A program made the position numbers and the translations under genes. This document shows positions 32,952-59,845 of a DNA stretch of 64,000 nucleotides, one piece after another; the first letter of the stretch is position 1; every line of letters starts with the position of its first letter. The stretch is from Sedimenticola selenatireducens (GTDB taxonomy: Bacteria; Pseudomonadota; Gammaproteobacteria; Chromatiales; Chromatiaceae): assembly GCF_007625115.1 (NCBI RefSeq), contig NZ_VMNH01000013.1:186001-250000 (forward strand). The letters run 5' to 3'. A model generated the notes under the pieces. The model was not told where the DNA came from. It did no database searches and saw nothing but the letters and a program-made list of their open reading frames with translations.

Positions 32952-34235
32952 ATGCGTGACCTACTTTTAGTACTTATTGTTTTTGGTTCATTGCCGTTAA
33001 TTTTAAAGCAACCGTATATTGGAGTGCTTGTTTGGTCGTGGATTAGCTACATGAATCCCCATAAGCTGGCGTGGGGTTTTGCAAAGGGCTTTCCGTTTGC
33101 CTACATCGTGGCAATTGTTCTTTGTTTCTCAATTGTTTTTTCAAGAGAACGTTTAAGAATTCCGAGAACCGGTCTTACAGTTCTTTGGGGTATTTTTCTA
33201 TTCTGGATGTGTATAACAACGCTTTTTTCAATCTTCCCAGAGTATGCTACAGATCAGTTAATTAAAGTACTCAAGATACAACTGGTTACGATTTTTACTG
33301 TCATGCTTATGACATCAAGGCGAAAAATTGATCTATTAGTCTGGGTGATTGTACTGTCCATTGGATTTTATGGCGTTAAAGGAGGGATATTTACCCTTCT
33401 TGCTGGTGGCGAAGCGCGTGTATGGGGCCCTGCGGGAAGTTTTATCCAAGAGAATAATAGTCTGGCACTTGCGCTGCTGATGATTCTCCCACTTATTTAT
33501 TATCTGTACTTGCAAGCAAAAAATATTTGGATTAAGCGAGGATTACTGTTTTCTATGCCAATAGTGGCTTTATCTATATTTGGTTCACAATCACGTGGTG
33601 CCCTTATTGGTATTGTGGCAATGGGCCTATTTATGGTGATGAAGTCAAAACAGAAAGTATTGGCGTTCATGGCAATTATTATTATTGGCGTATTTGGTTT
33701 TATGTTTATGCCTCAGCAATGGCATGACCGAATGAGCACAATTGAGGAATATGAACAAGACGCCTCTGCAATGGGTAGGATTAATGCCTGGAAATACAGC
33801 ATAAATGTTGCAAATGATAGAATTACTGGGGCAGGATTTGATTCGTGGAGTAGTTTAACTTTTGCGCAATACGCCCCAGATCCCGATGCTGTTCATGCGG
33901 CACACAGTATTTATTTCGGTGTGCTTGCTGATCATGGCTGGATAGGTTTACTGCTTTGGCTTGGTATCTTAGTTGCGGCTTGGCGAAGCAATAGCTGGAT
34001 TATTAGAAATGCAAGGGACCATCATCAACTAAGTTGGGCTGTTAACCTCGCTCGAATGTTGCAAGTGAGCATGATTTCATACGGTTCAGCGGGGGCTTTC
34101 TTAAGTCTGTCTTACTTCGATCTTCCGTGGCACATCATTGCAATAATTGTCCTTGTAAAGGAAATTGTTAAAAAGACCCTGGTGTCGGGAGGAAAAGAAA
34201 AGGAAGTTTTATCTCAAACTAGGCTGGGTGTTTAA
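32952..34235 (+). CDS. Exosortase-A-associated O-glycosylation ligase (Wzy/WaaL-like)
   Basis: A 427-aa polytopic membrane protein starting MRDLLLVLIVFGSLPLILKQPYIGVLVWSWISYMNPHKLAWG, the recognisable start of the exosortase-A-associated ligase family. About ten TM segments surround a periplasmic loop with FIQENNSLALALLMILP, SRGALIG and VHAAHSIYFGVLADHGWIGLLLW, matching O-antigen ligase/polymerase signatures. The role is polymerising or transferring lipid-linked glycan. A second polymerase-like domain is in the 52124-56518 protein. Confidence 0.9.
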   Translation: MRDLLLVLIVFGSLPLILKQPYIGVLVWSWISYMNPHKLAWGFAKGFPFAYIVAIVLCFSIVFSRERLRIPRTGLTVLWGIFLFWMCITTLFSIFPEYATDQLIKVLKIQLVTIFTVMLMTSRRKIDLLVWVIVLSIGFYGVKGGIFTLLAGGEARVWGPAGSFIQENNSLALALLMILPLIYYLYLQAKNIWIKRGLLFSMPIVALSIFGSQSRGALIGIVAMGLFMVMKSKQKVLAFMAIIIIGVFGFMFMPQQWHDRMSTIEEYEQDASAMGRINAWKYSINVANDRITGAGFDSWSSLTFAQYAPDPDAVHAAHSIYFGVLADHGWIGLLLWLGILVAAWRSNSWIIRNARDHHQLSWAVNLARMLQVSMISYGSAGAFLSLSYFDLPWHIIAIIVLVKEIVKKTLVSGGKEKEVLSQTRLGV

Positions 34236-44690: not shown

Positions 44691-46946
44691 ATGCCTATTC
44701 TGCTAATTATTTTTTTTCTTCTTTTTCCATATGATTTTGCTTTTTCGGGAGTTGATCATTTGGCCGCCGATTATCGTCCTCTGCGTGGTAAAAATATTGA
44801 TGACTGTGCCAGTAAACTGAAATCTCGATCAGGTGGCTGGTGTGAGATTCGCCACAGTGACCTTTACCCATCAATTTCTTCTGTATGGCCTAAAAATATT
44901 GATAATAAAACGCGGATGATAACTGGTCCATCTTCAATTTTGCATGCATGGAATAGTGCTGCTTTTGACGCTTCAAGATATAAACTATTCTTTATGAGTG
45001 GTGGACATGCAGACTATGGTGGAAATGAAGTATATGAGTTTGATCTTAAAAATGGTTCATGGAGTAGAATTACTGAGCCTTCGCCATTGGATTACTTATT
45101 TATATCAAGAGATTATGATGCTGATAAGAAAAAACCATGGCGTAGACTGTGTTGGATACCTAACATCAACACAGTACCAGCAAGCACGCATACATATGAC
45201 GGGCTTATCTTTAGTGATATAACACAAACTATATTCTTGTATGTAATGGGTGCTGCTAATGGATCCTGTATTGAGGATCAGAGTGATAAATTTAAAAGTG
45301 ATCCCCTCGTCTTGGGAACAACTGCAGATACGATAGGTTGGTATGAATTCAATCCAAGTAATAAAATCACTCAAAACAACTTGCCTCCTTTATCCTGGAG
45401 AAAGGTATTAACTTTTGAGCAGTTGAAAAGTAAAGCAATACATCAAGGGTATCCGGTGAGTACACTACTCAATAATGGGAGTATTGTTTTCGGTTCCAGA
45501 TATAAAACAGTTAAGTACAATCCAGAAAACATAAGTCAACGATCCTTCTCGCCATTTTCAGCGCAGGCAGATTGGGGTGATGGAACAAAGATTTATGACT
45601 CTTACAGAAATATCGTATGGTCATTGCACAATAAGGCGCTACTTGCATTTGATGGAGATAGGGGGAGTTTTCTTTACAAGTTATCAGCTGATTCCCCACA
45701 TGGTAAATCCTTGGCGGTTGCTAAGGATAAGCGGTTGTATGCGTGGGATGGCACATCAAGCATTTCGGTTATTGACCCCGATGGTGATCGACAATGGAAA
45801 ACACTTGAGTGGAGTATTAATGGCCCACCAACAGGTGATGGCAGAGTCTACGGAAAATGGGTCTATCTGGATAAGGAAGATTTGTTTGTTGGATTATCAA
45901 CCCATAAAACGGGTGTGTGGGTATATAAACATCCTGAAAATCCGACTTACACACAGTACTCGAACATTAATCCACAAGATCTGGTTAATAAATCCAAGCC
46001 CGGTGATAAAGTTACAATCCCTCCTGGCACCTACCGGCATGGGATATTTGTCAACAAATCACTTCATCTTGGGCTTAATGGTGTTATTTTTAGGGGTACT
46101 GTCAACAAGAAAAGTATTATTAATATTTCCTGTGATAACTGTAACGTGTTGATCGATGATTTTGTCGGTGATGGTGCAGTCGCTAATTGTCAATGGGGGA
46201 ATTGTGCTGGGATTAAAGCTGAGGGAAATAATTTCAACCTAACCTTGAAGAATGCACGTATCAGTAAAACGGTTATGGGCGTTCTTACTGATAACCGTGG
46301 CGGTCAGGTGATACTTGAAGACAGTATAATAGAAGACACAGGAATAGGCGGTGGATCAAGTACGCTGGGCCACGGTTTTTACGCTGGTGATATCGATAAG
46401 GTGATCGTCAAAAATTCGATTGTTCGGCGCTCTTTTGGAAAGGGGCATATCTTTAAAAGTAGGGCGTCTGACACTTTGATTGAGAACAGTGTGCTCGCAG
46501 GACTAGATGGGCGTCACTCCAGAATCATTGATTTTCCCTGTGGGGGCAAACTGACCATTCGGAATAGTGTACTGCAACAAGGAAAGCAGACGGATAATAT
46601 TGATTTGATAAGTGTAGGTACAGAACCGCAAAACTGCGGTGGTGGAGTTCATTCATCAGATATATCAATAAAAAATAGTTGGTTGATATTTGATAGGGAA
46701 GAATCAGCGGATGAGCCATCCGCCGATTATGGCTTTAATAGAATATTTACCTGGCGCGCACCTGTTTCTCACTTTGATGTGTCACAGAACCGAATCATAG
46801 AGAGTACCGGACGTATGCGTTTTGATGGAGAAGATCATATTCCTGATATGAGCCGCCAGAATCAGATGTTTCAAAGCCGAAAGGATGCTGGTCTTGGACC
46901 TGTAGAGATACCCTATAAAGGCATTATACAAAAACCTCTATTGTAG
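44691..46946 (+). CDS. Large secreted beta-propeller / right-handed beta-helix protein
   Basis: A 751-aa protein with a Sec signal (MPILLIIFFLLFPYDFAFS). Residues about 60-410 contain kelch-like blades (FMSGGHADYGGNEVYEFDLKNGSWSRI, NKALLAFDGDRGSFLYKLS). Residues about 425-720 form a right-handed parallel beta-helix: VNKSKPGDKVTIPPGTYRHG, VIFRGTVNKKSIINI, VLIDDFVGDG, VIVKNSIVRRSFGKGHIFKS. Beta-helices of this type occur in polysaccharide lyases and epimerases, but I cannot identify a catalytic pair. There is no PEP-CTERM or other sorting tail at the C-terminus. Its 3' end overlaps the convergent decarboxylase gene by 23 bases. Confidence 0.7.
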   Translation: MPILLIIFFLLFPYDFAFSGVDHLAADYRPLRGKNIDDCASKLKSRSGGWCEIRHSDLYPSISSVWPKNIDNKTRMITGPSSILHAWNSAAFDASRYKLFFMSGGHADYGGNEVYEFDLKNGSWSRITEPSPLDYLFISRDYDADKKKPWRRLCWIPNINTVPASTHTYDGLIFSDITQTIFLYVMGAANGSCIEDQSDKFKSDPLVLGTTADTIGWYEFNPSNKITQNNLPPLSWRKVLTFEQLKSKAIHQGYPVSTLLNNGSIVFGSRYKTVKYNPENISQRSFSPFSAQADWGDGTKIYDSYRNIVWSLHNKALLAFDGDRGSFLYKLSADSPHGKSLAVAKDKRLYAWDGTSSISVIDPDGDRQWKTLEWSINGPPTGDGRVYGKWVYLDKEDLFVGLSTHKTGVWVYKHPENPTYTQYSNINPQDLVNKSKPGDKVTIPPGTYRHGIFVNKSLHLGLNGVIFRGTVNKKSIINISCDNCNVLIDDFVGDGAVANCQWGNCAGIKAEGNNFNLTLKNARISKTVMGVLTDNRGGQVILEDSIIEDTGIGGGSSTLGHGFYAGDIDKVIVKNSIVRRSFGKGHIFKSRASDTLIENSVLAGLDGRHSRIIDFPCGGKLTIRNSVLQQGKQTDNIDLISVGTEPQNCGGGVHSSDISIKNSWLIFDREESADEPSADYGFNRIFTWRAPVSHFDVSQNRIIESTGRMRFDGEDHIPDMSRQNQMFQSRKDAGLGPVEIPYKGIIQKPLL

Positions 46947-48156
46947 CCGGATGACTCAGAAAACCTTGAGGACTCGCATTGAGCCCATAAGCACCTGATT
47001 GATAAACAACAATCAAATCACCAATAGTAATTACCGGTAGTTCAATCTTATTGGCAAGGATATCGAGTGGCGTACAGAGTGGACCTACAACATTCACAAT
47101 TTCACTATTTTCACTGACTACATGGTTACCAACACAAACGGGATAGTTTTTTCGAATCACTTGGCCAAAATTCCCTGATGCCGCCAGATGGTGATGTAAT
47201 CCACCATTGGTTACGATAAAGGTTTCTCCCCGCGATATTTTTTTGTCAATCACCTCACAGACATAAACGCCGGCTTCTCCCACGAGATAGCGACCCAGTT
47301 CTATAACAATTTCTGCATCGGGTAATCGAGTCTTACATTCATCGACTAGACTTTGCAGATTGTCCGCCACAGGTTGCAGATCAAGCGGCTTTTCGCCTGG
47401 GAAGTAAGGAATACCAAAACCACCACCAATATTGAGCCAGGTAATAGGTGAGGGTGCATATTCTGCCATTCGATAGGCGAGTTCAAAGGTGTTTGTCTGG
47501 GCCTCAATGAGTGCTTCAGGCCGAAGATTCTGTGATCCACTGAAGATATGAAATCCCTGGAAATCCAGACTCAAGTTGGCAATACGCTTAAGCACATCCG
47601 GCACACGTTCAGCATCAATGCCAAAGGGTTTTGGGCCACCGCTCATTTTCATGCCAGAAGTTTTTAGTTCAAAGTCCGGATTAACGCGTACAGATACACG
47701 GGGTTGGATAGATAACTTGTTGCCAATAGTGGCAATGCGTTCCATCTCACCTTCTGATTCCATGTTGATGGTGACACCGGCTGCTACAGCAGCGGTCAGC
47801 TCTTTATCACTTTTTCCCGGACCGGCAAAACTGATCTTGTCTGCAGCCATGCCGGTATCCAGTGCAACCTTCATCTCACCCAAAGAGGCAACATCCAGTC
47901 CATCGGTCAATCCTGACAGGTGTTGAACCACCGCAGGCATAGAGTTGGCCTTGATGGCGTAATGCAGATGGATCTCTTTTGGCAGAATGGCGCGAAGTTG
48001 CTGTAGTCGATCTGTTATTACCTTGCGATCATAAGCATAGAAGGGGGTCTGTCCTACGCGGGATGCCAGTCTGGTGAGCGGAATTCCACCAATCAGCAGC
48101 TCGTTATCCTGAATGGGGAACTGCATCATATCTGCATGCTTGGGTGTCTCTTTCAT
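46924..48156 (-). CDS. PLP-dependent decarboxylase, exosortase-A-associated
   Basis: A 410-aa fold-III PLP decarboxylase of the DapDC/ornithine-decarboxylase type. It shows TPFYAYDRKVI, the PLP lysine in LHYAIKANSMPAVV, FAGPGKSDKEL, ISFAGP-type and GGGFGIPYFPGEKPLD (phosphate loop), and the substrate-side CTPLDILAN and YQSGAYGLNASPQGF. In XrtA loci it is paired with the AMP-forming ligase, as here with an ATGA overlap. It probably makes an amine or decarboxylated amino acid used by the ACP/ligase pathway; the substrate is unknown. Confidence 0.92.
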   Translation of the reverse strand: MKETPKHADMMQFPIQDNELLIGGIPLTRLASRVGQTPFYAYDRKVITDRLQQLRAILPKEIHLHYAIKANSMPAVVQHLSGLTDGLDVASLGEMKVALDTGMAADKISFAGPGKSDKELTAAVAAGVTINMESEGEMERIATIGNKLSIQPRVSVRVNPDFELKTSGMKMSGGPKPFGIDAERVPDVLKRIANLSLDFQGFHIFSGSQNLRPEALIEAQTNTFELAYRMAEYAPSPITWLNIGGGFGIPYFPGEKPLDLQPVADNLQSLVDECKTRLPDAEIVIELGRYLVGEAGVYVCEVIDKKISRGETFIVTNGGLHHHLAASGNFGQVIRKNYPVCVGNHVVSENSEIVNVVGPLCTPLDILANKIELPVITIGDLIVVYQSGAYGLNASPQGFLSHPATIEVFV

Positions 48157-49748
48157 GGCGCTGTTTTTCCCAGGAAGATATCCTTGTATTCAGTCGAGAG
48201 TCCTTTTCGGTCTATTTTTCCGTTCTGATTGCGTGGTAGGTTCGATTTTACCTCAATAGCCTGGGGAATCATGAAGTTTGGTAACTCCTTCTGGCAGTGC
48301 TTGAGTATGGCTTCACGATCGGTGTTTTCATCGCCCGCAATCACCAGCAAGATGGCCTGTCCCAAGACTGGATGTGTCAGACCTAACGCGGCCACTTCAT
48401 TGACCATTTTAGAGCTGTAGATAACCTCTTCAATCTCGGTTGGGCTAACCCGATAACCGGAGGTCTTGATCATCTCATCTTTGCGACTAATGAAGTAGAG
48501 ATAGCCCTCTTCATCTTTTTTTACCTGATCACCTGACCAGACCGCTATCTCTGTCAAGGGTATCTCTGAGAGTTGACTGGGGCTGGGTTTGAATCGCTCG
48601 GCGGTCTTTTCCGGATCATTCCAGTAGCCCATTGCAACCAATGCACCCCGGTGAACCAGTTCACCGGGCTCTCCAGGGGCGCATTCCGAGCCATCTTCTC
48701 TAATTACCAGAATTTCCGCGTTAGGTATCGCCTTGCCCATCGACTCAGGGCGGCTATTGACCTGATCGGGTGGAAGGTAGGTTGAACGGAAGGCTTCGGT
48801 AAGACCGTACATGAGAAAGATATTGGTTTGTGGAAGTGACTGCTGCAATTTTTGAGTGGTGGCCTTGGGCATCGCGCCACCGGAATTGGTGATATAGCGA
48901 AGTGTATTGACAGCGCCTTCGGGCCACTCGAGTTGTGCCAGCTGGTTCCATAGAGGTGGCACAGCGGCCAGCCCGGTGATTTGATAGCGTTCTACAGCGC
49001 GGATAACGTCTCTGGGCAACAGATAATCCATCAGCACGACGCTGGCCCCAACACTGAAAGCCGTGGTCATTTGACTTAAGCCATAGTCAAAACTGAACGG
49101 AAGTACAGCTAATAGTCGATCATCTGCATTGTTCTCTAGATACTCCGCCACACTTTCAGCCCCCGCTACCATGTTACGGTGGGAGAGCACTACGCCTTTG
49201 GGGTTACCCGTGCTGCCGGAAGTATAGAGAATGGCTGCCATGTCGGTATCAATGCGACGGTGTGTTTGGGTAACAATGTCAGAAGAGTGGGAGAAAGCCG
49301 TTTCCCAAGTGAGGATACTGATATTGGAGACAACAGGTAATTCAGTTTGCTGTTGTCCGACAATGATCACTGTACGCAGGTCGTGACACTGGGCCAGTGC
49401 ATCAGACAGCAACCTAAGACGATCAGCAGAAGTAATCAGTACCCGGACATTACAATCTTTCAGTATGTAGGCTACCTGATGGGGTTTGAGTAGCGGATTA
49501 ACGGGTACAAATACCCCGCCAGCCTGAGCTGCACCAAAGAGGCCAAACACCGTTTCCGGTTGTTTTGGCAGATAGATAGCAACCCGTTCAGATGGCGCTA
49601 GGCCTAATTGAATCAGTCCAGTGGCAGTTGAATCTATCTCTGTCTGAAGTGCCGCATAGCTGTACTCGGTATTTTTGTGGATAAGTGCAGTTGCGGTGGG
49701 GTTTTGTTGAGCAGAGTTTGCTATAAATTGGTGGATCAATCCTGACAT
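48153..49748 (-). CDS. Acyl-CoA ligase (AMP-forming), exosortase-A-associated
   Basis: A 531-aa ANL-superfamily enzyme. Core motifs: AILYTSGSTGNPKGVVLSHRN (P-loop), NIFLMYGLTEAFRSTYL, GYWNDPEKTAERF, VWSGDQVKKDEEGYLYFISRKDEMIKTSGYRVSPTEIEE and the catalytic Lys region NQNGKIDRKGL. In this gene context the acceptor is likely the ACP encoded at 41277, although that gene is 7 kb away on the other strand. The stop overlaps the decarboxylase start. Confidence 0.92.
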   Translation of the reverse strand: MSGLIHQFIANSAQQNPTATALIHKNTEYSYAALQTEIDSTATGLIQLGLAPSERVAIYLPKQPETVFGLFGAAQAGGVFVPVNPLLKPHQVAYILKDCNVRVLITSADRLRLLSDALAQCHDLRTVIIVGQQQTELPVVSNISILTWETAFSHSSDIVTQTHRRIDTDMAAILYTSGSTGNPKGVVLSHRNMVAGAESVAEYLENNADDRLLAVLPFSFDYGLSQMTTAFSVGASVVLMDYLLPRDVIRAVERYQITGLAAVPPLWNQLAQLEWPEGAVNTLRYITNSGGAMPKATTQKLQQSLPQTNIFLMYGLTEAFRSTYLPPDQVNSRPESMGKAIPNAEILVIREDGSECAPGEPGELVHRGALVAMGYWNDPEKTAERFKPSPSQLSEIPLTEIAVWSGDQVKKDEEGYLYFISRKDEMIKTSGYRVSPTEIEEVIYSSKMVNEVAALGLTHPVLGQAILLVIAGDENTDREAILKHCQKELPNFMIPQAIEVKSNLPRNQNGKIDRKGLSTEYKDIFLGKTAP

Positions 49749-51132: not shown

Positions 51133-51903
51133 ATGAGATTACCAGCCTTGGCTATCTATGGCATGGTGCTGTTGAGCCTGTTTTCTTCTCACGTCAACAG
51201 TGCAGAGCTGCCTGATATTATTGATCGAATCAGGCCGAGTGTGGTGGCAGTGGGTACTGTCATGCCCTTGAGGCGTCCGTCTGCCCAGTTTATGGGAACG
51301 GGTTTTGTTATCGGTAATGGTAATCTGGTCATCTCCAATCATCATGTGATTCCCGATCTGATCGATGTTGCTAAAAAGGAGACATTGGCGGTATTCAGTG
51401 GGCGAGGCGAAAAGGCCAAGGTACACCCAGCAAAGATTGTCAAGGCCGATCCTGATCATGACCTGGTTCTTTTGGAGATATCCAATGGGCCACTGCAGCC
51501 TATGTCACTGGCAGCGGAGACTGAAATTCGGGAGGGTGAGGCCATTGCATTTACGGGCTTTCCGATTGGAATGGTCTTGGGACTCTACCCGATAACACAT
51601 AGGGGCATTATATCTGCCATTACCCCGATAGTGATTCCATCGAATAACTCCAAGAACCTTACGGCAAAACAGATTCAGCGTATGCGCAATCGTTTCGAGG
51701 TGTATCAGCTGGATGGTACCGCCTATCCGGGCAACAGTGGTAGCCCGGTTTATGATGCACAGTCAGGACGGGTTGTAGGCGTTTTGAACAGTGTTTTTGT
51801 AAAGGAGTCTAAGGAGACTCTGCTGGAAAGACCCTCAGGTATCAGCTATGCAATTCCTGTTAAGTATGTTCATGCATTGTTGAAGGATGCTAAAAAACAG
51901 TAG
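51133..51903 (+). CDS. Periplasmic trypsin-like serine protease (S1C, no PDZ)
   Basis: A 256-aa protein with a signal peptide (residues 1-24, cleavage near NSA-ELP). The catalytic triad can be read as His71 in ISNHHVIP, Asp110 in PDHDLVLLEI and Ser202 in YPGNSGSPV. No PDZ domain follows, unlike DegP or DegS. A GAGGT motif lies upstream of the ATG. It sits alone, in the plus direction between minus-strand EPS genes. A quality-control or processing role in the exopolysaccharide envelope system is possible but only inferred. Confidence 0.85.
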   Translation: MRLPALAIYGMVLLSLFSSHVNSAELPDIIDRIRPSVVAVGTVMPLRRPSAQFMGTGFVIGNGNLVISNHHVIPDLIDVAKKETLAVFSGRGEKAKVHPAKIVKADPDHDLVLLEISNGPLQPMSLAAETEIREGEAIAFTGFPIGMVLGLYPITHRGIISAITPIVIPSNNSKNLTAKQIQRMRNRFEVYQLDGTAYPGNSGSPVYDAQSGRVVGVLNSVFVKESKETLLERPSGISYAIPVKYVHALLKDAKKQ

Positions 51904-52123: not shown

Positions 52124-55100
52124 TTACAATCTGATATGAATGGTTCCCTCCAGCGCATCAGGGAACTCAACTAGGGTTATGCCAGCACTGTTTGAAACGT
52201 AATGTTTTTCGCTGCCGTTGAAAGAGAGCGTTATCTGGCTGCCGGGATTGCGTCCCAGGAGATAAAGGGTTTTATCACCCGCTTTTTTCATTAATGAAAC
52301 GCTGCTTTCATTCAGATCAGTAAGGAACAGAATCAAATTTTCCTGGCTGCGTGTGCCGTATACGTTGGAGCGATCAGTTTTTAGTGGACTGGGCTTTATA
52401 GTACTAAATTCATCGATACTAGGAGTTAATACCGTTAAAAAATGATCCTCCAGGTTTGCTTCTTCCGGCTGTATCTCAATGCGCCATTGACTGTCATCAA
52501 ACCAGGGCTGTTTGTTTACGCCCTCCACCATATTTTTGCCATCCAGATCGGAATCATCGCCATCCTTTTCAACGTAAAACTGATAGTCGGTTCCACCAAT
52601 CAGACGGGTAACGGCCTTTTCAGGATAGATTCGATCGACTCTTAACCTGCCCACACCATTTACTATCTTTAAGCTGTCCGATCGACTTTCTAATATTCCA
52701 TTGGATTCAGTGCCTTTTAATATGGTGGTGTTTTCCAGGGTGGGGCGGTTGATAGTGTGTAATAACCATTTCTTGGTGTAATCAGGATGGGTGCTGACGA
52801 TTTTATCGTGAATGAACAGTTGATCAGCTTCAACAAGATAGAGAAGTTCTCGGACAACCGAGGTGACCTTTCCATCTTCACCCGTTTCATCATAATGTGT
52901 GTTGTTGTAAGCAGGTGTGAGATCTGTAGCGAGATAGTGGTAGCCGTTTGTATTATCGAAGTCATATGCATTGAGTTTTCCACCTTCGAGGTGTTGTCCG
53001 TCATTCAACTGCTCGGCCCATTGGATGGTGCTGCTAATTGAACTACCGGTAGGCAGTGTGATGCGTTGTCCTCCAGCAGAAACGTTCTCTTTGAAGAATC
53101 TGTTGGGTTTGACCTCTTCATCTTTGCGAAGAATGAGCAGGGAGTTTTTGGATACGGTACGCAGACTGTAGTTGAGCCGATGCTCGTCGAAGAATCCACC
53201 GTAAGTACCGCTGTTGCTGACCAGTGGCGCACCTTTGAATAGGGTGAAATGACCGGCATCGTAATGACCATGATGGGTAAAGTTGTTGCCGGACCGTAGC
53301 GTAATAAAAGTGTCTTGCGGTGACCAACCTGAGCGGAAGTAGGCCATATTCATGGCATTTATTCCAAATAGGGCTGCAGTGGGTAGTCGTTGAGCAAAAC
53401 TAAGCGTCTTTTTAGTGGGCTGTGCTTCAGGAATAATGGAGGGGTCGTTGAACAGGATGAATCCCCAGCGATAATCCTGATAATAACTGGCATGGCGGTG
53501 CAACTCGCCAAGATAGTTTGAGTAGGCCGCCAGTACGGGGTCTTTGGTTGCTTGAGTGATGAGGTCGATGATTCGTCTTGTCTCATCTTTCAGGTCAACA
53601 CGGGGTCCTTCATCGCCCAGTCCGTGGGCCTTGTTATCTGGTCGGGTATTGTAAATGTGCCAGTAGCCAATGCGTCTGAGTGTCTCCATTACTTGGTCGT
53701 GATTTTCCGCAACCTCTAAGCCATTCAGATAGGCCGTGGTAGCGAGTGAGATCAGAAATGCACGATTATTAATCCAGTAGTTGTAGCCTTCAGGCCAGGC
53801 CTCAGTCATCGCTAAAGCCTTCAGGGATTCAAGGAAGTGTCCCTGAGCTTGAGTGATGAGGTTCAGGTCATCCGGATTCTCTGGATCCAAAACTATAGCT
53901 GCAAGCCAAGCAATTGAGGAGAGTGTAGCGCGTCCATGCCAAAGCGACATGTTGTCACCTTCAAGCAGTAACAGCGCGTGACGCAGAGCTCCGCGGATTC
54001 TTGCCTCAATAACTACTCGATCAGTCTCTTTTAGATCGGGATAGCGACGTATAAAATCATAGGCAAAGGCATAGTGCCAGAGATTACCATAACTCTCGTT
54101 ATTTCTGGCAACCTGCATGTAACCAGTTTTCAGCACATTAATAATCCGCTCGGCTGTGGCCGGTTTTCCGGTGCTTAACCAACAGGCTGTGAGCCCTGGT
54201 AGGCTGTTACTTGAGCAGGGAGAATAGTGTTTTCGGTCATAATCACTATATTGTTCAATCCGTTGCTTCATCTGTGGTGAGATGTCATTTCCAGGCCACT
54301 GAGAGAGTTCGGGAAATAGTATCCGAGGATGAGTGGCCCGAACTTTCCCAACCAATTTGTGATCACTGTGGAAACGGTTTGGTAGAAGGGCCTGTACCAG
54401 GTAGCCATCCTGTTGTCCCAGTTTATCCAGTGTGCGCAATGCCAACTGTCTGGGACCCATTCCCGTTACTCGCGTAGCACCCCAGGTTCCAAAGATTATG
54501 AATACAACTAGACTCGTGGCAATTATTCCCAATTGTCGAGAAGGGGGTAGCATGCGGAATTGCCGGAACAGTTTAGCTGGAATGCCGGGTGTCGCAGGTG
54601 TTGTTGGCGCTAGGACAAGTGCAGTTGATCGACTCGCCAACAGAATCCATGTGCATAAGAAGAGTAGTAGCGTCAGTTTGGGCTCATCTAAAATACTGTC
54701 GAAAAGACCCACCACCAACAACCCGGTGAGTGCAGGAAGATAGAGTAGAGGATAGCTATCCCGTTGCCGCAGGCGTTTTATTGAAATGAGCAGGCTGTAT
54801 AAGATCAGGAGAGTAAAAATAGCAAGACCAATCCAACCCCCTTCGAAGAAGGTATCAACCCAGATATTCTTTATATGCCAGCTAAGATGATTGCCTGAAT
54901 AGAAAAACCAGTGGTCCAAACCTTTATCAAAGCTACTATTACTGAGTAGACTCTTTCCACTGGGTGTGATGATTTGCACATCATCAATATCAAGACCCTT
55001 TGTCAAACCACGATTTAAGATCGAGATCTGCACCGGCCGAGAGCCATACCAATACTTCTTCCCTAGATCATTTACGCTGAATTTTTTATTGAAATTGACC

Positions 55101-56518
55101 CATTCTGTGCTTTTTGAACCGGTGTCAATTCCCATCCATTTACAGTTTTTGTAGGGTTGGTAAATCAGGCGTTCACATATCTCAACTAGTAGTCGGGTTG
55201 GCTGTTCTGTTCTTGGGCGCAATGATATGGAAAGCCGGTAAGTCCCTGGCTCAGAAACATCAAAGCGCTGAGTCAGAAACAGATCGCCGCTATTGTTGCT
55301 TTTATCCATGCGCAGAAAATTATTGGCATCTTCTTTGATGTGCAGCATCGTTGGCGGTAGTGAATCAACCGGGTGTGACCAGTAATAGTGTCTTGGAAAT
55401 GAGCCCCTTCCCATACCCCATAGCTTGTTCTCAGGGCTATTACCCATCATCTCAATGGCCGAGTTCCAATGAACAAATCTGCCAGAAAGATCACTACTAA
55501 CGGTACTGAAACGGTGCTTGATAAATTCTCCACTGATAAACGGTGCCGAAATAATCAGTGCCAACAGTAGAATGCCGCCCAGATACCATCCTTTCCCATG
55601 ATGCGAAGAGTCCACATGCCTTTTAAGATAAAACCAGGCGGCCAAGCCGGTAATGATTGCAATAATCACTGCAGCATAGTCAGCGCGGCTAAATGTGACG
55701 GCTAGACCGTAGAATGCGAATAAGAGTAGGCCAAATCCGATCAGATGGAGAAGGCGGGAATTCCGGATCAGGAACAGTGCGGTGATGAAGGGTAGAGAGA
55801 AAATTAGGTGCGCATCAAGCGGGGCGCCACCCGTGGTCATACCGGAAAACAGTGCTGTTACACGATAGGGTTTTGAGAAGTTAAAAACACCGGCAAATAG
55901 GGCGCGCTCCCAGAGTATTGCAGTAAGGTCGGCCGCGAGTCCGCCGATCATGCCAAAAATAAACAGCTGAGTGACCTTATTCCCTCTGTTGATGGCTTGA
56001 CCTAAAAGTGGCAAGAGCAAGAGTGCCCAGAAAAAACCTTTAGCCAACCGTAGACTGTTGTAGTGACTGTAGTAGCTGGTAAAAGCGTTAGCATCAATGG
56101 GTTGTAGAGGTAGCAGTCCCTTTAATGCTGTGTAGGTCTGCCAAATAATCAGCAGAAAAATCAGTGCCCAGCGTTTCCAATTGAGTTGTAACGGTGCAAT
56201 CCAGGCGTCACGACGTAATAGACCAGAAGCAACACTGACTAAAACAAGCAGATCGAACTCACTAAAAAATATACGGCCGGTAGTCGGGGTTAAATCCATT
56301 ACAGGCAGTAGAGTAGGGACCACAATCAGCCAGAGCCACGGATAGCGCCAGAGGAGTATAAAATAGGTACAAAGGCCAGCCCCAAGCCAAAGGTTTCCCG
56401 CTGGAAATTCCAGTAGTGTTATTGTGACAATCGCAAGCATTACGACTGCAAGCATGCATTGCAAAAATACTAGTGAGGATGATGCGCGATGAGTCGTAGA
56501 CGAGACAGATGGAGTCAT
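52124..56518 (-). CDS. Membrane O-antigen polymerase-like / heparinase II/III-like fusion
   Basis: A single 1464-aa frame. Residues about 15-345 and 550-630 are polytopic membrane segments with the O-antigen ligase/polymerase look (GLAVTFSRADYAAVIIA near 271-287; LWGMGRGSFPRHYY near 366-379). Inserted at about 385-525 is a periplasmic jelly-roll-like module (DLFLTQRFDVSEPGTYRLSISLRP). After another TM (about 662-680), residues 720-1030 form an alpha-rich region typical of the lyase toroid, and 1050-1464 a beta-sandwich with NNFTHHGHYDAGHFTLF (His1085, Asp1087), the heparinase II/III signature. It probably makes or transfers glycan and cleaves it in the periplasm. The start codon is uncertain. 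Confidence 0.82.
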   Translation of the reverse strand: MTPSVSSTTHRASSSLVFLQCMLAVVMLAIVTITLLEFPAGNLWLGAGLCTYFILLWRYPWLWLIVVPTLLPVMDLTPTTGRIFFSEFDLLVLVSVASGLLRRDAWIAPLQLNWKRWALIFLLIIWQTYTALKGLLPLQPIDANAFTSYYSHYNSLRLAKGFFWALLLLPLLGQAINRGNKVTQLFIFGMIGGLAADLTAILWERALFAGVFNFSKPYRVTALFSGMTTGGAPLDAHLIFSLPFITALFLIRNSRLLHLIGFGLLLFAFYGLAVTFSRADYAAVIIAIITGLAAWFYLKRHVDSSHHGKGWYLGGILLLALIISAPFISGEFIKHRFSTVSSDLSGRFVHWNSAIEMMGNSPENKLWGMGRGSFPRHYYWSHPVDSLPPTMLHIKEDANNFLRMDKSNNSGDLFLTQRFDVSEPGTYRLSISLRPRTEQPTRLLVEICERLIYQPYKNCKWMGIDTGSKSTEWVNFNKKFSVNDLGKKYWYGSRPVQISILNRGLTKGLDIDDVQIITPSGKSLLSNSSFDKGLDHWFFYSGNHLSWHIKNIWVDTFFEGGWIGLAIFTLLILYSLLISIKRLRQRDSYPLLYLPALTGLLVVGLFDSILDEPKLTLLLFLCTWILLASRSTALVLAPTTPATPGIPAKLFRQFRMLPPSRQLGIIATSLVVFIIFGTWGATRVTGMGPRQLALRTLDKLGQQDGYLVQALLPNRFHSDHKLVGKVRATHPRILFPELSQWPGNDISPQMKQRIEQYSDYDRKHYSPCSSNSLPGLTACWLSTGKPATAERIINVLKTGYMQVARNNESYGNLWHYAFAYDFIRRYPDLKETDRVVIEARIRGALRHALLLLEGDNMSLWHGRATLSSIAWLAAIVLDPENPDDLNLITQAQGHFLESLKALAMTEAWPEGYNYWINNRAFLISLATTAYLNGLEVAENHDQVMETLRRIGYWHIYNTRPDNKAHGLGDEGPRVDLKDETRRIIDLITQATKDPVLAAYSNYLGELHRHASYYQDYRWGFILFNDPSIIPEAQPTKKTLSFAQRLPTAALFGINAMNMAYFRSGWSPQDTFITLRSGNNFTHHGHYDAGHFTLFKGAPLVSNSGTYGGFFDEHRLNYSLRTVSKNSLLILRKDEEVKPNRFFKENVSAGGQRITLPTGSSISSTIQWAEQLNDGQHLEGGKLNAYDFDNTNGYHYLATDLTPAYNNTHYDETGEDGKVTSVVRELLYLVEADQLFIHDKIVSTHPDYTKKWLLHTINRPTLENTTILKGTESNGILESRSDSLKIVNGVGRLRVDRIYPEKAVTRLIGGTDYQFYVEKDGDDSDLDGKNMVEGVNKQPWFDDSQWRIEIQPEEANLEDHFLTVLTPSIDEFSTIKPSPLKTDRSNVYGTRSQENLILFLTDLNESSVSLMKKAGDKTLYLLGRNPGSQITLSFNGSEKHYVSNSAGITLVEFPDALEGTIHIRL

Positions 56519-57076
56519 TTCAGTTTGATTTCAGTGGTATGAAGGGCTAATCCATCAACTCAGTGACGACTATTTCTGATGGTAAGTGCTGCTTTATAAA
56601 TAATTGATGGGTCACTGCCGACTTGTCTATTATAGTGTGTCTCATTGATGATGGTAAACGATTGAATATACTGCCCAAAAATAAACAATTGATAGTGGAT
56701 GTTACACTCCAGGCTCGACTGAAAATGTATAATCCCCCAGGTTTTTGGATGATTCATAAGTTATATGAACGGGTATTGGATTATCCCGGCATCGAATGTA
56801 AAGGAAAAATATTCTTATAATTACGGATGTACCATGAGTGAATCAATAAGTTACGTGTGAAGCATACAGCCAAAAATTCATCTCCCTGTTGCCGGGTTTG
56901 CATGTCTCGGGCATTATGTATCGATTATTAGAACGTATATTTTGGAAGATATATCCAAATAGGATTGAGTACCATTGATGTTAGTTATTGTGGTTCTCGC
57001 AGCATTCTCAAGCAGCATATAGAGTCCAGATTTACTCAGCCTTGCACTGCTTTTGAATCTACAGATGGGAAGTTTC
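56519..57076. promoter_or_regulatory. Divergent intergenic region with interleaved inverted repeats
   Basis: About 560 bases lie between the polymerase-lyase gene (minus) and prsT (plus). Two 7-bp inverted repeats are interleaved: CCATCAA (56552-56558) with TTGATGG (56604-56610), and CAGTGAC (56561-56567) with GTCACTG (56611-56617). They could form mutually exclusive or pseudoknotted stems in the minus-strand leader, or be regulator sites. Small open frames here (for example 56623-56820) lack ribosome sites and homology I recognise. No clear promoter hexamers were found. Confidence 0.4.
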
Positions 57077-59845
57077 ATGAATAAGAAATTAAAGTTTGCA
57101 CTCTCTTTCACCTCACTATTGTTTATTGCCGGCTGCGGGTCTGTTGATGATCTGCAACATATCGAAAATGCAAAGAAATTCCTGGCAAATGGCGATCAGA
57201 AATCTGCGCTAATTGAACTTAAAAGTTCTATCCAACAAAATCCACAAAACGGCAACGCACGAACCCTGTTGGGACAGCTTTATTTGAAGGCAGGGAATTT
57301 TGCAGCAGCAGAGAAAGAGTTGAAAAAAGCGCTAGAACTTGGTGCAGATGACAATGAGATATTCCCTTATCTCAGCAAGGTACTCCTACAGTTGAGAAAA
57401 CTGGATGATGTCATTGCGATAAAGACGAGCCATCTCCGACCGAATGAACAAGGAGAGGTGCTAGCGGCACAGGGCGTTGCATTGTTGGTACGGAGTGACC
57501 ATGAAAATGCAATTAAGCAAATAGACCGTGCTGTAGAGATTGCCCCAGGCTCGGCTTATGTACATGTTGCAAAGGCCAGTGCTTTTATGATGGCTGAAAA
57601 GTCTCTTACAAACGCGCGAGAAGAGTTAAAGCGGGCATTTGAGATTGATAATAACTTCCCGGCTGCCTGGAGTCTGTTGGGCGATATCGAGGCCAATGAG
57701 AAGAATCTGGAATTAGCCCGTGACGCCTACACCAAATCGATGTCGCTAATGCCGACGAATCTGGCCGATCGCAACAAGCGTGTGACCGTCAATATCCTAT
57801 TGAATGATCTGAAAAAGGCGCAGTACGATCTGGATATTTTAAAAAAGATGCTTCCTGGTAACGCGGGTGTGGCCTTCTCTCAGGGGTTGGTGTATCTGGC
57901 ATCCAATAAGTTGGAAGATGCTAAATCCGCATTTGATTTGGCCCTGCTTGATCAGGATCGCTATCCCTTGTCGTTATTTTATCTTGCCTATGTCAATTAT
58001 CGTTTAGGCAGCATTGCCCAGGCAGAAACCCATGCAGAGCGGTATTTCACGTTAAATCCAGGGCATCTCGCCAACAGAAAATTACTGGCTGATATCAAGT
58101 ATTCAAAGAAAGAGTATGACTATGTTGATACGCTGATCAATCCGGTACTGGAAGCCAATCGAGAGGATGATGAACTCCTAAACATATTGGCAAAAACAAA
58201 ACTGATGCGTGGTGAGACTGCTGAGGGTATCGCTCTTCTTAATCAGATAGTAGAACGTAATCCAGAGTCTGCAGAAGCGAGGGTACGACTTGGGGCTGGA
58301 CTCTTGATGAGTGGTAATCAATCGGAGGGTTTTGCCCAGCTAGAGACTGCAATAGCACAGGATAAGGATGACCATCAAGCAGATACATTGCGGGTATTAA
58401 GTTACCTAAGATTGAAGGAAATGGAGAAAGCACATCAGGCAGCAGCTGATTTTCTGAAAAGAGCTCCTGAGAGTGAGATACCGCATAACTTGATGGGCAT
58501 GATTTTTATTGCAGAGAGGGATTTGCAAGGCGCCAGGAAAGCGCTGGAACAATCATGGAAAATCAAACCAGGCAATACCGATGCTGGTCATAATCTGGCA
58601 ATTCTGGCTATTCAGGATAAGCAATATGCCCAGGCTAGAGATTTTCTCAACGGGGTTATTTCGGCTCACCCTGACAATCTTGAAACCTTAGTGAAGTTGG
58701 CGGAACTGGATGTGATTGAGGGGAAAGCAGAACAACAAGTACAGCGGTTAGAAAGGGCGATTCGTCTATATCCTGGTGCTGTAAAGCCTCGTTTGATGCT
58801 GGCAAGGTACTATATCAATTCAGGGAATCCAGCGCAGGTGACCGGGTTGATAGAAACACTCGATTTTGAGGCACGAAAACAATTACCGGTTTTGGAAGTG
58901 CTTGCCATCCAGGCGATAGCGCAAAAAAATTACAAGGCTGTGGAAAAGTCCGCGTCAGATATCATAGCAAAGAAGCCGGATGGTCCGGAAGGTCACTATC
59001 TGTTGGCACAGGCCTATGCGGGGCAAGACAATCTGAAGTTGGCTGAGAAAGCCTTATTAACAGCAATTGAAAAGGATGATCAGTATTTACCAGCGCGTAT
59101 AGCGCTTCTACGACTCCTTGTGAAAAAACAGGATATTCCGGCGGTCGAGCGTGAAATCGCCTCTTTGAAAACATTTACCAGTAAAAATGAAGATGTAATG
59201 AAAGTGGCCTTTGCCCTTGAGGAATTAAAGGGTGATCAACAACAAGCGTTGAAACTTGCAGAAGAGGTGTTTTCAGCCTATCCAAATATTGACAATATGC
59301 TCGCCTTATCCAGACAGCGTTTACGGGTAGGAGACAGCGCAGGGGCGTTGAGTTTGCAGGAAAAATGGGCAGAGAGTCATAGTGAAGAGTACAACGCAAA
59401 CTTTATTCTGGCTGAATCGTATACTCGATTGAAGAAATATGATTTGGCAGCGAAGTATTATCAGCGTGCATTGGCTGTGGCACCTGATGATATAAGAGTA
59501 TTGAATAATTTGGCTTGGGTCATGCGAACTTATGATCCCGAGCAGGCATTAACCTACATACAAAGAGCGAATGAGTTAAAGCCAGGGTCAGTAGCCCTGA
59601 TGGACACATTGGCACTGGTCTACCTAGCCAATAAAGAGACAGAGCTGGCACTGCGCACAATCAAGGAGGTGGGCTATCTGGAGTCTAATAACCCAACTTT
59701 GCGTTATCACGAAGCGTTAATTAACTCGATGGCTGGAAATAACAAAATAGCGGTTGAGATTCTCACTGATCTGCTGAAAAAGGAGCAGGAGTTTTCAGAA
59801 AAAGCAGAAGCCAAGGCACTGCTCGAAAAGCTGAACAAGGGATAG
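57077..59845 (+). CDS. prsT: PEP-CTERM system TPR-repeat lipoprotein PrsT
   Basis: A 922-aa lipoprotein. The signal MNKKLKFALSFTSLLFIAGC ends at lipid-site Cys20. The rest is about 20 or more TPR units (for example NARTLLGQLYLKAGNFAAAEKELKKALELG; NFILAESYTRLKKYDLAAKYYQRALAVAPDD). Upstream in-frame starts at 57053 and 57065 exist, but GGGA at 57067-57070 and the signal-peptide fit select ATG 57077. PrsT is a standard companion of exosortase A and is thought to be an envelope scaffold for EPS or PEP-CTERM protein export. Confidence 0.92.
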   Translation: MNKKLKFALSFTSLLFIAGCGSVDDLQHIENAKKFLANGDQKSALIELKSSIQQNPQNGNARTLLGQLYLKAGNFAAAEKELKKALELGADDNEIFPYLSKVLLQLRKLDDVIAIKTSHLRPNEQGEVLAAQGVALLVRSDHENAIKQIDRAVEIAPGSAYVHVAKASAFMMAEKSLTNAREELKRAFEIDNNFPAAWSLLGDIEANEKNLELARDAYTKSMSLMPTNLADRNKRVTVNILLNDLKKAQYDLDILKKMLPGNAGVAFSQGLVYLASNKLEDAKSAFDLALLDQDRYPLSLFYLAYVNYRLGSIAQAETHAERYFTLNPGHLANRKLLADIKYSKKEYDYVDTLINPVLEANREDDELLNILAKTKLMRGETAEGIALLNQIVERNPESAEARVRLGAGLLMSGNQSEGFAQLETAIAQDKDDHQADTLRVLSYLRLKEMEKAHQAAADFLKRAPESEIPHNLMGMIFIAERDLQGARKALEQSWKIKPGNTDAGHNLAILAIQDKQYAQARDFLNGVISAHPDNLETLVKLAELDVIEGKAEQQVQRLERAIRLYPGAVKPRLMLARYYINSGNPAQVTGLIETLDFEARKQLPVLEVLAIQAIAQKNYKAVEKSASDIIAKKPDGPEGHYLLAQAYAGQDNLKLAEKALLTAIEKDDQYLPARIALLRLLVKKQDIPAVEREIASLKTFTSKNEDVMKVAFALEELKGDQQQALKLAEEVFSAYPNIDNMLALSRQRLRVGDSAGALSLQEKWAESHSEEYNANFILAESYTRLKKYDLAAKYYQRALAVAPDDIRVLNNLAWVMRTYDPEQALTYIQRANELKPGSVALMDTLALVYLANKETELALRTIKEVGYLESNNPTLRYHEALINSMAGNNKIAVEILTDLLKKEQEFSEKAEAKALLEKLNKG

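What the first reader, a model, noticed from the sequence alone, without database searches (positions are those of the whole stretch)
52124..56518. One polypeptide joining a polysaccharide polymerase/ligase-like membrane domain to a heparinase-type lyase
The 1464-aa frame runs without interruption from polytopic O-antigen-ligase-like segments, through a periplasmic jelly-roll-like insert, to a heparinase II/III beta-sandwich with NNFTHHGHYDAGHF. Polymerase and lyase are normally separate genes. Physical fusion suggests that chain growth and chain cleavage are coupled at one site, either for length control or for release of the glycan from the carrier.
Basis: partly seen in the sequence, partly recalled or inferred. 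Interest (0 to 1): 0.78.

Follow-up and report, generated by a model that had tools for sequence, protein, structure and literature searches.

The report
Glycan polymerase fused to heparinase-like lyase
A single bacterial membrane protein joins an enzyme of the kind that builds surface sugar chains to one of the kind that cuts them, and the same join is found in several other bacteria, which suggests that building and cutting (or editing) of the chain may be done together.

Summary
The 1464-aa frame (window 52124-56518, minus strand) is uninterrupted. Residues 1-632 are a Wzy/WaaL-type glycan polymerase or ligase with a CBM4-like jelly roll in its periplasmic loop; residues 659-1464 are a membrane-anchored heparinase-II-like enzyme whose His/Tyr/His triad is invariant in 34 of 34 aligned rows. 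Eight other species carry a complete fusion frame, so it is no assembly artefact. Trees of both halves reject a single fused clade (AU p 4e-7 and 7e-126): fusion recurred, or arose once and was lost often. The join is simple: stand-alone relatives of the lyase start with a like signal anchor, so topology is kept. Both halves occur, mostly as separate genes, in exosortase-A (XrtA) exopolysaccharide loci. In the same clade of the Wzy tree, two proteins carry a PL6-like or another beta-helix in place of the heparinase. Elsewhere VanZ is fused to Wzy or to a related heparinase, so all three pairings exist. My reading is a tethered polymerase-lyase that trims or clears the uronate-containing chain being assembled. 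Activity, substrate and coupling are inferred; C5-epimerisation is the main chemical rival. I found no report of the fusion in the searched library.

The parts
52124..56518 (-). Whole fusion gene, 1464 aa (P0001), stop codon included
   Evidence: complete fused homologues in 8 other species
55529..56518 (-). Residues 1-330: first 11 membrane helices of the Wzy/WaaL-type half, N-terminus predicted inside
   Evidence: AlphaFold model; Wzy_C 264-380; K+R in short loops 15 of 79 residues inside against 4 of 69 outside, helix limits set by hand; fold like WaaL 7tpg_B, TM-score 0.62 by target length, E 4e-3
54866..55528 (-). Residues 331-551: large periplasmic loop with CBM4-like jelly roll (about 390-540) and the WHxKN motif at its end
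   Evidence: profile match to CBM 4mgq E 8.5e-7; Foldseek 1gui, 4mgq; H548 invariant in 16 of 16 rows
54623..54865 (-). Residues 552-632: last three membrane helices of the Wzy half
54545..54622 (-). Residues 633-658: cytoplasmic linker rich in Pro and Thr, the join
   Evidence: 633-660 is 46% identical to G003 where the other six segments are 56-88%; pLDDT about 42-44
54467..54544 (-). Residues 659-684: membrane anchor that in stand-alone relatives is the N-terminal signal anchor of the heparinase
   Evidence: 33 of 34 stand-alone homologues examined have a hydrophobic 19-mer there; alignment
53384..54466 (-). Residues 685-1045: stalk and alpha/alpha-toroid of the heparinase-type half
   Evidence: AlphaFold model pLDDT 87.6; heparinase II is top Foldseek match, TM-score 0.71-0.72 by target length
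52127..53383 (-). Residues 1046-1464: beta-sandwich part of the heparinase-type half
53936..53938 (-). His861, aligned with His311 of the PL15 lyase Atu3025
   Evidence: invariant 34 of 34; alignment
53777..53779 (-). Tyr914 (WPEGYNYW), aligned with Tyr365 of Atu3025
   Evidence: invariant 34 of 34; alignment
53270..53272 (-). His1083 (THHGHYD), aligned with His531 of Atu3025
   Evidence: invariant 34 of 34; alignment; PDB title of 3afl names the H531A mutant
51133..51903 (+). Neighbour: trypsin-like protease, a recurrent neighbour of heparinase or Wzy genes
   Evidence: Trypsin_2 E 1e-26; found in 11 of 43 loci and 5 of 12
57053..59845 (+). Neighbour: PrsT, XrtA/PEP-CTERM system TPR protein
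   Evidence: TIGR02917, 578 bits, cut-off 312
21547..23163 (+). Exosortase A (XrtA) with EpsI domain, same locus
   Evidence: TIGR03109, 345 bits, cut-off 208
46924..49748 (-). XrtA-associated decarboxylase and acyl-CoA ligase, same locus
   Evidence: TIGR03099 and TIGR03098, over cut-off
32952..34235 (+). Second O-antigen-ligase-type protein of the locus: putative exosortase-A-associated O-glycosylation ligase
   Evidence: TIGR03097, 496 bits, cut-off 188

Best explanation
The gene encodes one inner-membrane protein of an exosortase-A exopolysaccharide system: a Wzy/WaaL-type glycan polymerase (or ligase) of about 14 helices whose periplasmic loop carries a carbohydrate-binding module, joined through a short cytoplasmic linker to the signal anchor of a periplasmic heparinase-II-like lyase. 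SHOWN (by sequence, prediction and comparison): the single frame, the folds, the conserved triad, the kept topology, repeated occurrence, and the two partners as separate genes elsewhere, many of them in XrtA-type loci. INFERRED: the Wzy half joins lipid-linked repeat units on the periplasmic face, the CBM holds the growing chain, and the tethered lyase cuts the same uronate-containing (perhaps N-acetylhexosaminuronate) chain by beta-elimination, so that over-long, stalled or misdirected chains are trimmed or cleared where they are made. This would be an AlgL-like housekeeping and length-limiting function built into the polymerase itself.
For: Frame and domains. Wzy fold and CBM. Heparinase II fold. 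Triad His/Tyr/His invariant in 34 of 34 aligned rows, separate and fused alike. Stand-alone heparinases have a like anchor (33 of 34 by hydropathy), so fusion keeps the domain periplasmic. Recurrence: fused rows need at least 4 changes in the heparinase tree and 5 in the Wzy tree; one clade rejected, AU p 4e-7 and 7e-126. In the window's clade of the Wzy tree, two rows carry a PL6-like (L064, 7o79 E 2.8e-5) or another beta-helix (L063) in place of the heparinase, behind what looks by eye like the heparinase anchor and stalk. XrtA over cut-off in 10 of 11 genomes with a whole or partly seen fusion. Homologues of the window's XrtA-locus genes lie beside 7 of the 8 other complete fusions. Uronate supply: the only match over cut-off to the nucleotide-sugar dehydrogenase family (1 of 6 matches) is TviB-like, beside a TviC-like epimerase and an XrtA-type ATPase, all three below their equivalog cut-offs. 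Precedent: AlgL clears periplasmic alginate during synthesis (PMC8829089, abstract seen).
Against: No activity or substrate is known. The fold also holds a C5-epimerase (human dermatan sulfate epimerase 6hzn, rank 16). Heparinase II zinc ligands as I recall them are only partly kept: the Asp424 position is Asn in 25, Thr in 4, Ser in 3, Lys in 1 and Asp in 1 of 34 rows, the His464 position Lys in 28 of 34. Foldseek gave no match to the Wzy model at E 0.001; WaaL came at 4e-3. In Sedimenticola hydrogenitrophicus the Wzy half is open and the lyase half is in pieces, so the lyase can be lost. Most Wzy rows carry no lyase (11 of 58 do). The locus has a second ligase-type protein, so polymerase versus ligase is undecided. 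Repeated fusion of neighbours can also be neutral.
Confidence: 0.5

Rival explanations
1. Ordinary operon fusion without coupling: two neighbouring genes of the exopolysaccharide locus lost the stop between them. The lyase is a plain inner-membrane-anchored periplasmic cleaning enzyme and gains nothing from the tether except equal amounts.
For: The two genes are neighbours elsewhere: L029, 3 bases apart on one strand; L012, same strand with one gene between; L008 and L031, divergent. The linker is the least conserved segment (46% identity). The lyase half is broken in one species.
Against: The join recurred by both trees, and in the window's Wzy clade other C-terminal modules stand in the same place, which a neutral accident does not predict.
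Confidence: 0.22
2. The C-terminal half is a glycuronan C5-epimerase, not a lyase: it flips uronates of the nascent chain right after polymerisation.
For: Human dermatan sulfate epimerase shares the fold (rank 16) and, as I recall, the His/Tyr/His set. The beta-helix in L063 gives a weak NosD-type match (E 6e-7, far under cut-off), a fold that as I recall also includes the epimerase AlgG.
Against: The profile search of solved structures lists 8 distinct sequences at E up to 1, all named lyase or heparinase and none epimerase (heparinase II E 9e-37, Atu3025 E 5e-5). The module in L064 is PL6-lyase-like.
Confidence: 0.15
3. The Wzy half is the ligase that moves finished glycan to a protein or lipid acceptor, and the lyase cuts glycan loose from the carrier or trims its end at that step (the release reading of the first reader).
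For: The fold matches the ligase WaaL. The XrtA system has a putative O-glycosylation ligase family (TIGR03097 name). VanZ, predicted in PMC12419801 (passages seen) to release or transfer carrier-linked glycan, sits mostly where no tail is fused: of 58 Wzy rows, 26 have an N-terminal extension of 300 or more, 16 a C-terminal tail of 250 or more, 1 both, 15 neither (related rows, so not independent).
Against: The locus already has the TIGR03097 protein. VanZ is also fused to heparinases (5 of 5 tested frames), so VanZ and lyase are not simple alternatives. A lyase cuts inside a uronate chain, not the carrier phosphate.
Confidence: 0.13

Closest known systems
WaaL O-antigen ligase / Wzy polymerases (Pfam Wzy_C, PF04932)
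   Same: Wzy_C match over cut-off, WaaL-like fold (E 4e-3), conserved Arg and His residues in the membrane/loop part
   Different: About 14 helices rather than WaaL's 12 (recalled) in the Wzy part, a CBM4-like module inside the periplasmic loop, and an anchored lyase at the C-terminus
Heparinase II (PL21) of Pedobacter and the PL15 lyase Atu3025
   Same: Toroid plus beta-sandwich fold, aligned His/Tyr/His triad
   Different: Membrane-anchored and fused to a polymerase-type protein, in a biosynthetic locus; two recalled zinc-ligand positions changed in most rows
AlgL, the alginate lyase encoded in the Pseudomonas alginate synthesis operon (PMC8829089, abstract seen)
   Same: Periplasmic lyase encoded with the synthesis genes; shown there to clear polymer from the periplasm
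   Different: AlgL is a free protein in what I recall as a synthase-dependent system; here the lyase is tethered to a Wzy-type protein. AlgL has an (alpha/alpha)5 toroid (section heading) and, as I recall, no beta-sandwich
VanZ-Wzy and VanZ-heparinase proteins found in this survey
   Same: Homologous Wzy half (VanZ-Wzy) or a heparinase of the same Pfam family (VanZ-heparinase); in 2 of 5 VanZ-heparinases the N-terminal module of more than 400 residues is the one of VanZ-Wzy, in the other 3 mainly VanZ itself matches
   Different: They pair VanZ with one of the two; the window protein pairs the two with each other, and its genome has no VanZ match at E 0.001

Membership tests
Wzy_C / O-antigen ligase superfamily | Significant Wzy_C profile match | tested here: met
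   E 2e-8, 34.6 bits over cut-off 31.7
Wzy_C / O-antigen ligase superfamily | Fold of WaaL | tested here: met
   7tpg_B TM-score 0.62 by target length, rank 3, but Foldseek E only 4e-3 and no match at E 0.001
Wzy_C / O-antigen ligase superfamily | Catalysed polymerisation or ligation of carrier-linked glycan | not testable with these tools
   needs an experiment
Heparinase II/III-like lyase (PL12/15/17/21 fold class) | Hepar_II_III_C profile match over cut-off | tested here: inconclusive
   22.5 bits for the whole protein (cut-off 24), 24.6 for the fragment; 29 of 34 aligned rows match at E 0.01; own-genome search found nothing at E 0.001
Heparinase II/III-like lyase (PL12/15/17/21 fold class) | Toroid plus beta-sandwich fold | tested here: met
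   model pLDDT 87.6; heparinase II E 4e-37, TM-score 0.71-0.72 by target length
Heparinase II/III-like lyase (PL12/15/17/21 fold class) | Catalytic His, Tyr, His | tested here: met
   H861, Y914, H1083 aligned with Atu3025 H311, Y365, H531, 34 of 34 rows
Heparinase II (PL21) proper | HepB equivalog score and three zinc ligands (recalled: H408, D424, H464) | tested here: not met
   97 bits against cut-off 600; H408 position His in 33 of 34, D424 position Asp in 1 of 34, H464 position His in 1 of 34
XrtA/PEP-CTERM exopolysaccharide system | Exosortase A and the XrtA-type export, chain-length, kinase and PrsT genes in the same locus | tested here: met
   TIGR03109, 03027, 03007, 03018, 02917, 03097, 03098 and 03099 all over cut-off in the window; XrtA over cut-off in 10 of 11 genomes searched
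AlgL-type periplasmic homeostasis lyase (works like) | Loss is harmful while the polymer is made, because polymer piles up in the periplasm | not testable with these tools
   needs an experiment
Glycuronan C5-epimerase of the same fold | Closer to epimerases than to lyases | tested here: not met
   no epimerase among 8 sequences at E up to 1; dermatan sulfate epimerase rank 16 by fold; activity not tested

The most novel reading that the evidence does not exclude
A class of polymerase-depolymerase enzymes: in exosortase-A exopolysaccharide systems the Wzy-type polymerase repeatedly takes up an exchangeable chain-cutting module (heparinase-II-like, PL6-like, other beta-helix) at its C-terminus, so that one protein both builds the chain and, by cutting it at the assembly site, sets its length or frees it. 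VanZ is a third interchangeable module of the same step.
Probability: 0.33. Interest if true: 0.85.

Novelty: new variant of a known kind. Interest (0 to 1): 0.68.

Why it matters
From general knowledge, not from a call: how Wzy-dependent exopolysaccharides get their chain length, and what becomes of stalled chains in the periplasm, is poorly understood, and Wzy enzymes are hard to work with. A natural Wzy-lyase fusion would say which lyase serves which polymerase and give a one-gene system in which cutting can be switched off by one residue. PEP-CTERM proteins and exopolysaccharide genes are tied to floc formation (PMC9850573 and PMC9012009, start of abstract seen in a search listing). The fusion and a TviB/TviC-like gene pair predict a hexosaminuronate polymer and an enzyme that cuts it.

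Tried and rejected
Assembly artefact or chance frame: rejected, complete fused frames in 8 other species.

Obligatory VanZ partner: not supported. Of 11 genomes with a whole or partly seen fusion, 4 have no VanZ match at E 0.001 (G000, G003, G951, G953), 7 have one, 4 of these over cut-off.

One fused clade: rejected in both trees. A single origin with many later losses is not excluded by those tests. In the Wzy test the rows with other tails (L063, L064, L098) and L065 counted as outsiders although they lie inside the window's clade, so part of the rejection comes from them. A second heparinase test without L013 also rejected one clade (p 1.5e-4). Two further clade tests (the window's Wzy clade alone; Chromatiaceae plus L013) did not run to an end and were not repeated.

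dN/dS as proof of selection on both halves: of little use, because synonymous sites are saturated between window and G003 (pS 0.67-0.82; ratios printed as 0 there mean dS could not be estimated). I rely on amino-acid identity only.

The C-terminal tail of L098 (about 400 aa) matched nothing in PDB at E 1 (part of it), nor did its whole frame in Pfam at 0.1 or NCBIfam at 1e-5; it stays unclassified. The tails of L067 and L068 look hydrophobic, not enzymatic, by eye.

Literature. No paper holds both 'exosortase' and 'heparinase' or both 'O-antigen ligase' and 'heparinase II'. PMC11340318 was opened on the chance that 'fused' meant a Wzy fusion; in the 12 of 35 places shown the word stands only for cloning. 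PMC12502699 was searched for WaaL residues, without use. The library lacks most subscription papers.


Full report
WHAT IS THERE. The window lies in a 4.03-Mb genome with 41 contigs (G000, contig C31:186001-250000), close to Sedimenticola (L002, S. hydrogenitrophicus, 71% identity; L001, S. thiotaurini isolate, 84%). The frame 52124-56518 is on the minus strand, ATG to stop, 1464 aa. Wzy_C matches 264-380 (E 2e-8, over cut-off) and Hepar_II_III_C 1077-1167 (E 9e-5, just under cut-off for the whole protein); NCBIfam HepB matches 950-1406 (E 6e-28, far under its equivalog cut-off). A genome search with Hepar_II_III_C alone missed it at E 0.001.

ANATOMY. I aligned the heparinase half with 33 relatives (A1) and the Wzy half with 15 (A2) and predicted both. 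The Wzy half (pLDDT 79.6) has about 14 membrane helices by my reading of the model and hydropathy. With helix limits set by hand, short loops assigned to the inside hold 15 K+R in 79 residues and those outside 4 in 69. Foldseek finds CBM4-type modules 1gui and 4mgq and, at rank 3, WaaL 7tpg_B (TM-score 0.62 by target length), all at E about 4e-3; nothing reaches E 0.001. The CBM match is also seen by sequence (4mgq, E 8.5e-7). The heparinase half (pLDDT 87.6) matches heparinase II best (E 4e-37, TM-score 0.71-0.72 by target length), then exoHep, Atu3025, GAGase II and PL17 lyases, with human dermatan sulfate epimerase at rank 16.

ACTIVE SITE. In the profile alignment with Atu3025, H311, Y365 and H531 of that lyase fall on H861, Y914 and H1083 of the window protein. 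All three are invariant in 34 of 34 rows. H531 is named in the PDB title of 3afl, and H202/Y257 of heparinase II in that of 3e7j; the roles of H311 and Y365 I recall. Of the heparinase II zinc ligands (recalled H408, D424, H464), the first position is His in 33 of 34 rows, the second is Asn in 25, Thr in 4, Ser in 3, Lys in 1 and Asp in 1, and the third is Lys in 28, Arg in 3, Ala in 2 and His in 1. It is therefore a member of the fold class with a full triad, not heparinase II proper.

HOW THE JOIN WAS MADE. Stand-alone homologues start with a single hydrophobic anchor, in most followed by a stalk of the kind 'yFqLTPxQ..vK..EKsgi'; 33 of 34 have a hydrophobic 19-mer there (KD 1.5 or more; the miss, L008, scores 1.24). 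The window protein keeps anchor and stalk at about 659-700. The cytoplasmic C-terminus of Wzy was thus joined to the cytoplasmic N-terminus of an anchored lyase, and both domains keep their sides of the membrane. The linker 633-660 is the least conserved segment against G003 (46% identity; anchor and stalk 56%; Wzy segments 74-88%; toroid 76%; sandwich 63%). In L029 the two genes lie 3 bases apart.

HOW COMMON. Complete single frames with both halves are in the window and 8 further species: L003 Motiliproteus MAG, L004 Methylococcaceae MAG, L005 Allochromatium palmeri, L007 Thiocystis violacea, L013 Thiobacillus MAG, L016 Thiorhodococcus mannitoliphagus, L044/G003, and G158/L060. I take G154, G222 and G220 to be L005, L007 and L016 again, from equal frame lengths and identities. 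Partly seen: G943 has both parts in a frame that runs off the contig; in G239 the frame stops inside the heparinase half about 120 bases before the contig end; L001 and G008 are cut at a contig edge. In S. hydrogenitrophicus the Wzy half is open (674 aa) and the heparinase half is in pieces. Surveys with P0001 (own genome counted in each, samples overlap): any match in 10 of 93 relatives, 42 of 210 genomes of the order, 31 of 370 of the class and 10 of 397 of the phylum. Complete fusions among these: 2 of 93, 6 of 210, 1 of 370 and 1 of 397. The fusion is rare.

HOW OFTEN IT AROSE. In the heparinase tree (43 rows) the 9 fused rows lie in four groups (Sedimenticola; L003 with L004; L013; Chromatiaceae) and need at least 4 changes; L001, undecided, counted as unfused. 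In the Wzy tree (58 rows) the 11 fused rows need 5, with the broken L002 counted as unfused. Holding them together as one clade is rejected (AU p 4e-7; p 7e-126). Gain by repeated fusion is the simplest reading; one gain with many fissions is not formally excluded. Heparinases of two Methylomonas MAGs without the fusion (L015, L039) sit beside the fused L004, which fits either a fission or separate fusions.

A MODULAR KIT. In the Wzy tree, the window's clade of 11 rows (SH-aLRT 100) holds 6 Wzy-heparinase proteins (two of them, L058 and L097, seen in part), two with a different beta-helix tail (L063, L064), one with an unclassified tail (L098), one plain Wzy (L065) and the S. hydrogenitrophicus Wzy; a further beta-helix tail, L091, lies outside it. 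The L064 tail matches a PL6 mannuronate lyase (7o79, E 2.8e-5) and Chondroitinas_B (E 4e-5, just under cut-off). The L063 tail is related to the window's own beta-helix protein 44691-46946 (E 2e-20). Both tails begin with a stretch that by eye resembles the heparinase anchor and stalk, which suggests that the enzyme domain was exchanged behind a kept anchor; this homology was not tested statistically. Outside this clade, 27 of 58 Wzy rows carry an N-terminal extension of 300 or more residues, and VanZ is over cut-off in 11 of the 11 such frames I sent to Pfam. Five of five long heparinase frames have VanZ plus Hepar_II_III_C; their heparinase is a more distant relative (25-29% identity over HEPC). 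The N-terminal module of the VanZ-Wzy proteins matches two of these five over more than 400 columns (E 2e-136 and 2e-107 in a search of five sequences) and the other three mainly over VanZ. Of 58 Wzy rows, 26 have an N-terminal extension only, 16 a tail of 250 or more only, 1 both (L067, whose tail looks hydrophobic) and 15 neither. All three pairings of VanZ, Wzy and lyase exist as fusions; I saw no triple among the frames examined.

CONTEXT. The window holds an XrtA exopolysaccharide locus. Of 11 genomes with a whole or partly seen fusion, 10 have XrtA over cut-off; the miss is a MAG (G949), whose locus L004 nevertheless has matches to the window's export, chain-length and kinase proteins. 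Homologues of the window's XrtA-locus genes lie beside 7 of the 8 other complete fusions; L013, on a 12-kb contig, shows none. The only match over cut-off (1 of 6) to the nucleotide-sugar dehydrogenase family in the genome is TviB-like (505 bits, equivalog cut-off 592), beside a TviC-like epimerase (474 bits, cut-off 760) and an XrtA-type ATPase (253 bits, cut-off 324.5), on contig C40. This fits a polymer with an N-acetylhexosaminuronate, the kind of residue a lyase needs, but the link between C40 and this locus is inferred.

WHAT IT MOST LIKELY DOES. The Wzy half builds (or transfers) the chain at the periplasmic face, the CBM holds it, and the lyase cuts the same chain when it is stalled, stray or long. 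AlgL is the precedent for a lyase that clears the periplasm during synthesis (PMC8829089, abstract). Shown here: architecture, fold, triad, topology by prediction, recurrence and locus. Inferred: the common substrate, cleavage rather than epimerisation, and the effect on length or release.

NOVELTY. Wzy-type enzymes, heparinase-fold lyases and XrtA loci are known kinds. I found no description of the fusion of the first two, its recurrence or the module exchange, which reach only an open-licence library. PMC12419801 (passages seen) treats VanZ fusions in exopolysaccharide loci; its main text holds neither 'exosortase' nor 'lyase' at a word start.

One search recounted the active-site columns and coordinates. 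Corrections made then: the zinc-position counts, the linker confidence, the VanZ tallies and the scope of several 'most' statements.

Noticed in passing
window 51133-51903 (+); also L001, L002, L004, L012, L014, L015, L029, L038, L039, L042, L044, L132, L133, L135, L140, L142: A trypsin-like protease (Trypsin_2) with a signal-peptide-like start is a recurrent neighbour of heparinase, Wzy and VanZ-heparinase genes: 11 of 43 loci, 5 of 12 (L142 is the G003 place of L044 again). Whether it processes the fusion or a PEP-CTERM protein is unknown.
   Followed up: partly
window 44691-46946 (+): 751-aa protein whose C-terminal part gives a weak NosD-type beta-helix match and is related to the tails fused to Wzy in L063, L071 and L091: a second possible glycan-active enzyme of the locus.
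   Followed up: partly
L132:4178-7732, L133:1740-5519, L133:5528-9082, L134:5012-8545, L135:2905-6468: VanZ-heparinase fusion proteins of about 1180-1260 aa, two in tandem in L133.
   Followed up: partly
L138:7398-10682 (-): Wzy with an unclassified C-terminal domain of about 400 aa, near a PrsT-like gene (27% identity).
   Followed up: partly
L002:9971-13813; L140:7548-10424: The lyase half is broken (S. hydrogenitrophicus) or ends early near a contig end (G239) while the Wzy half stays open: possible natural loss of the lyase.
   Followed up: partly
L005, L007, L016, L060: The Chromatiaceae fusions have well over 100 extra, largely hydrophobic residues between the Wzy helices and the CBM loop, as do the plain Wzys L038, L041 and L051.
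   Followed up: no
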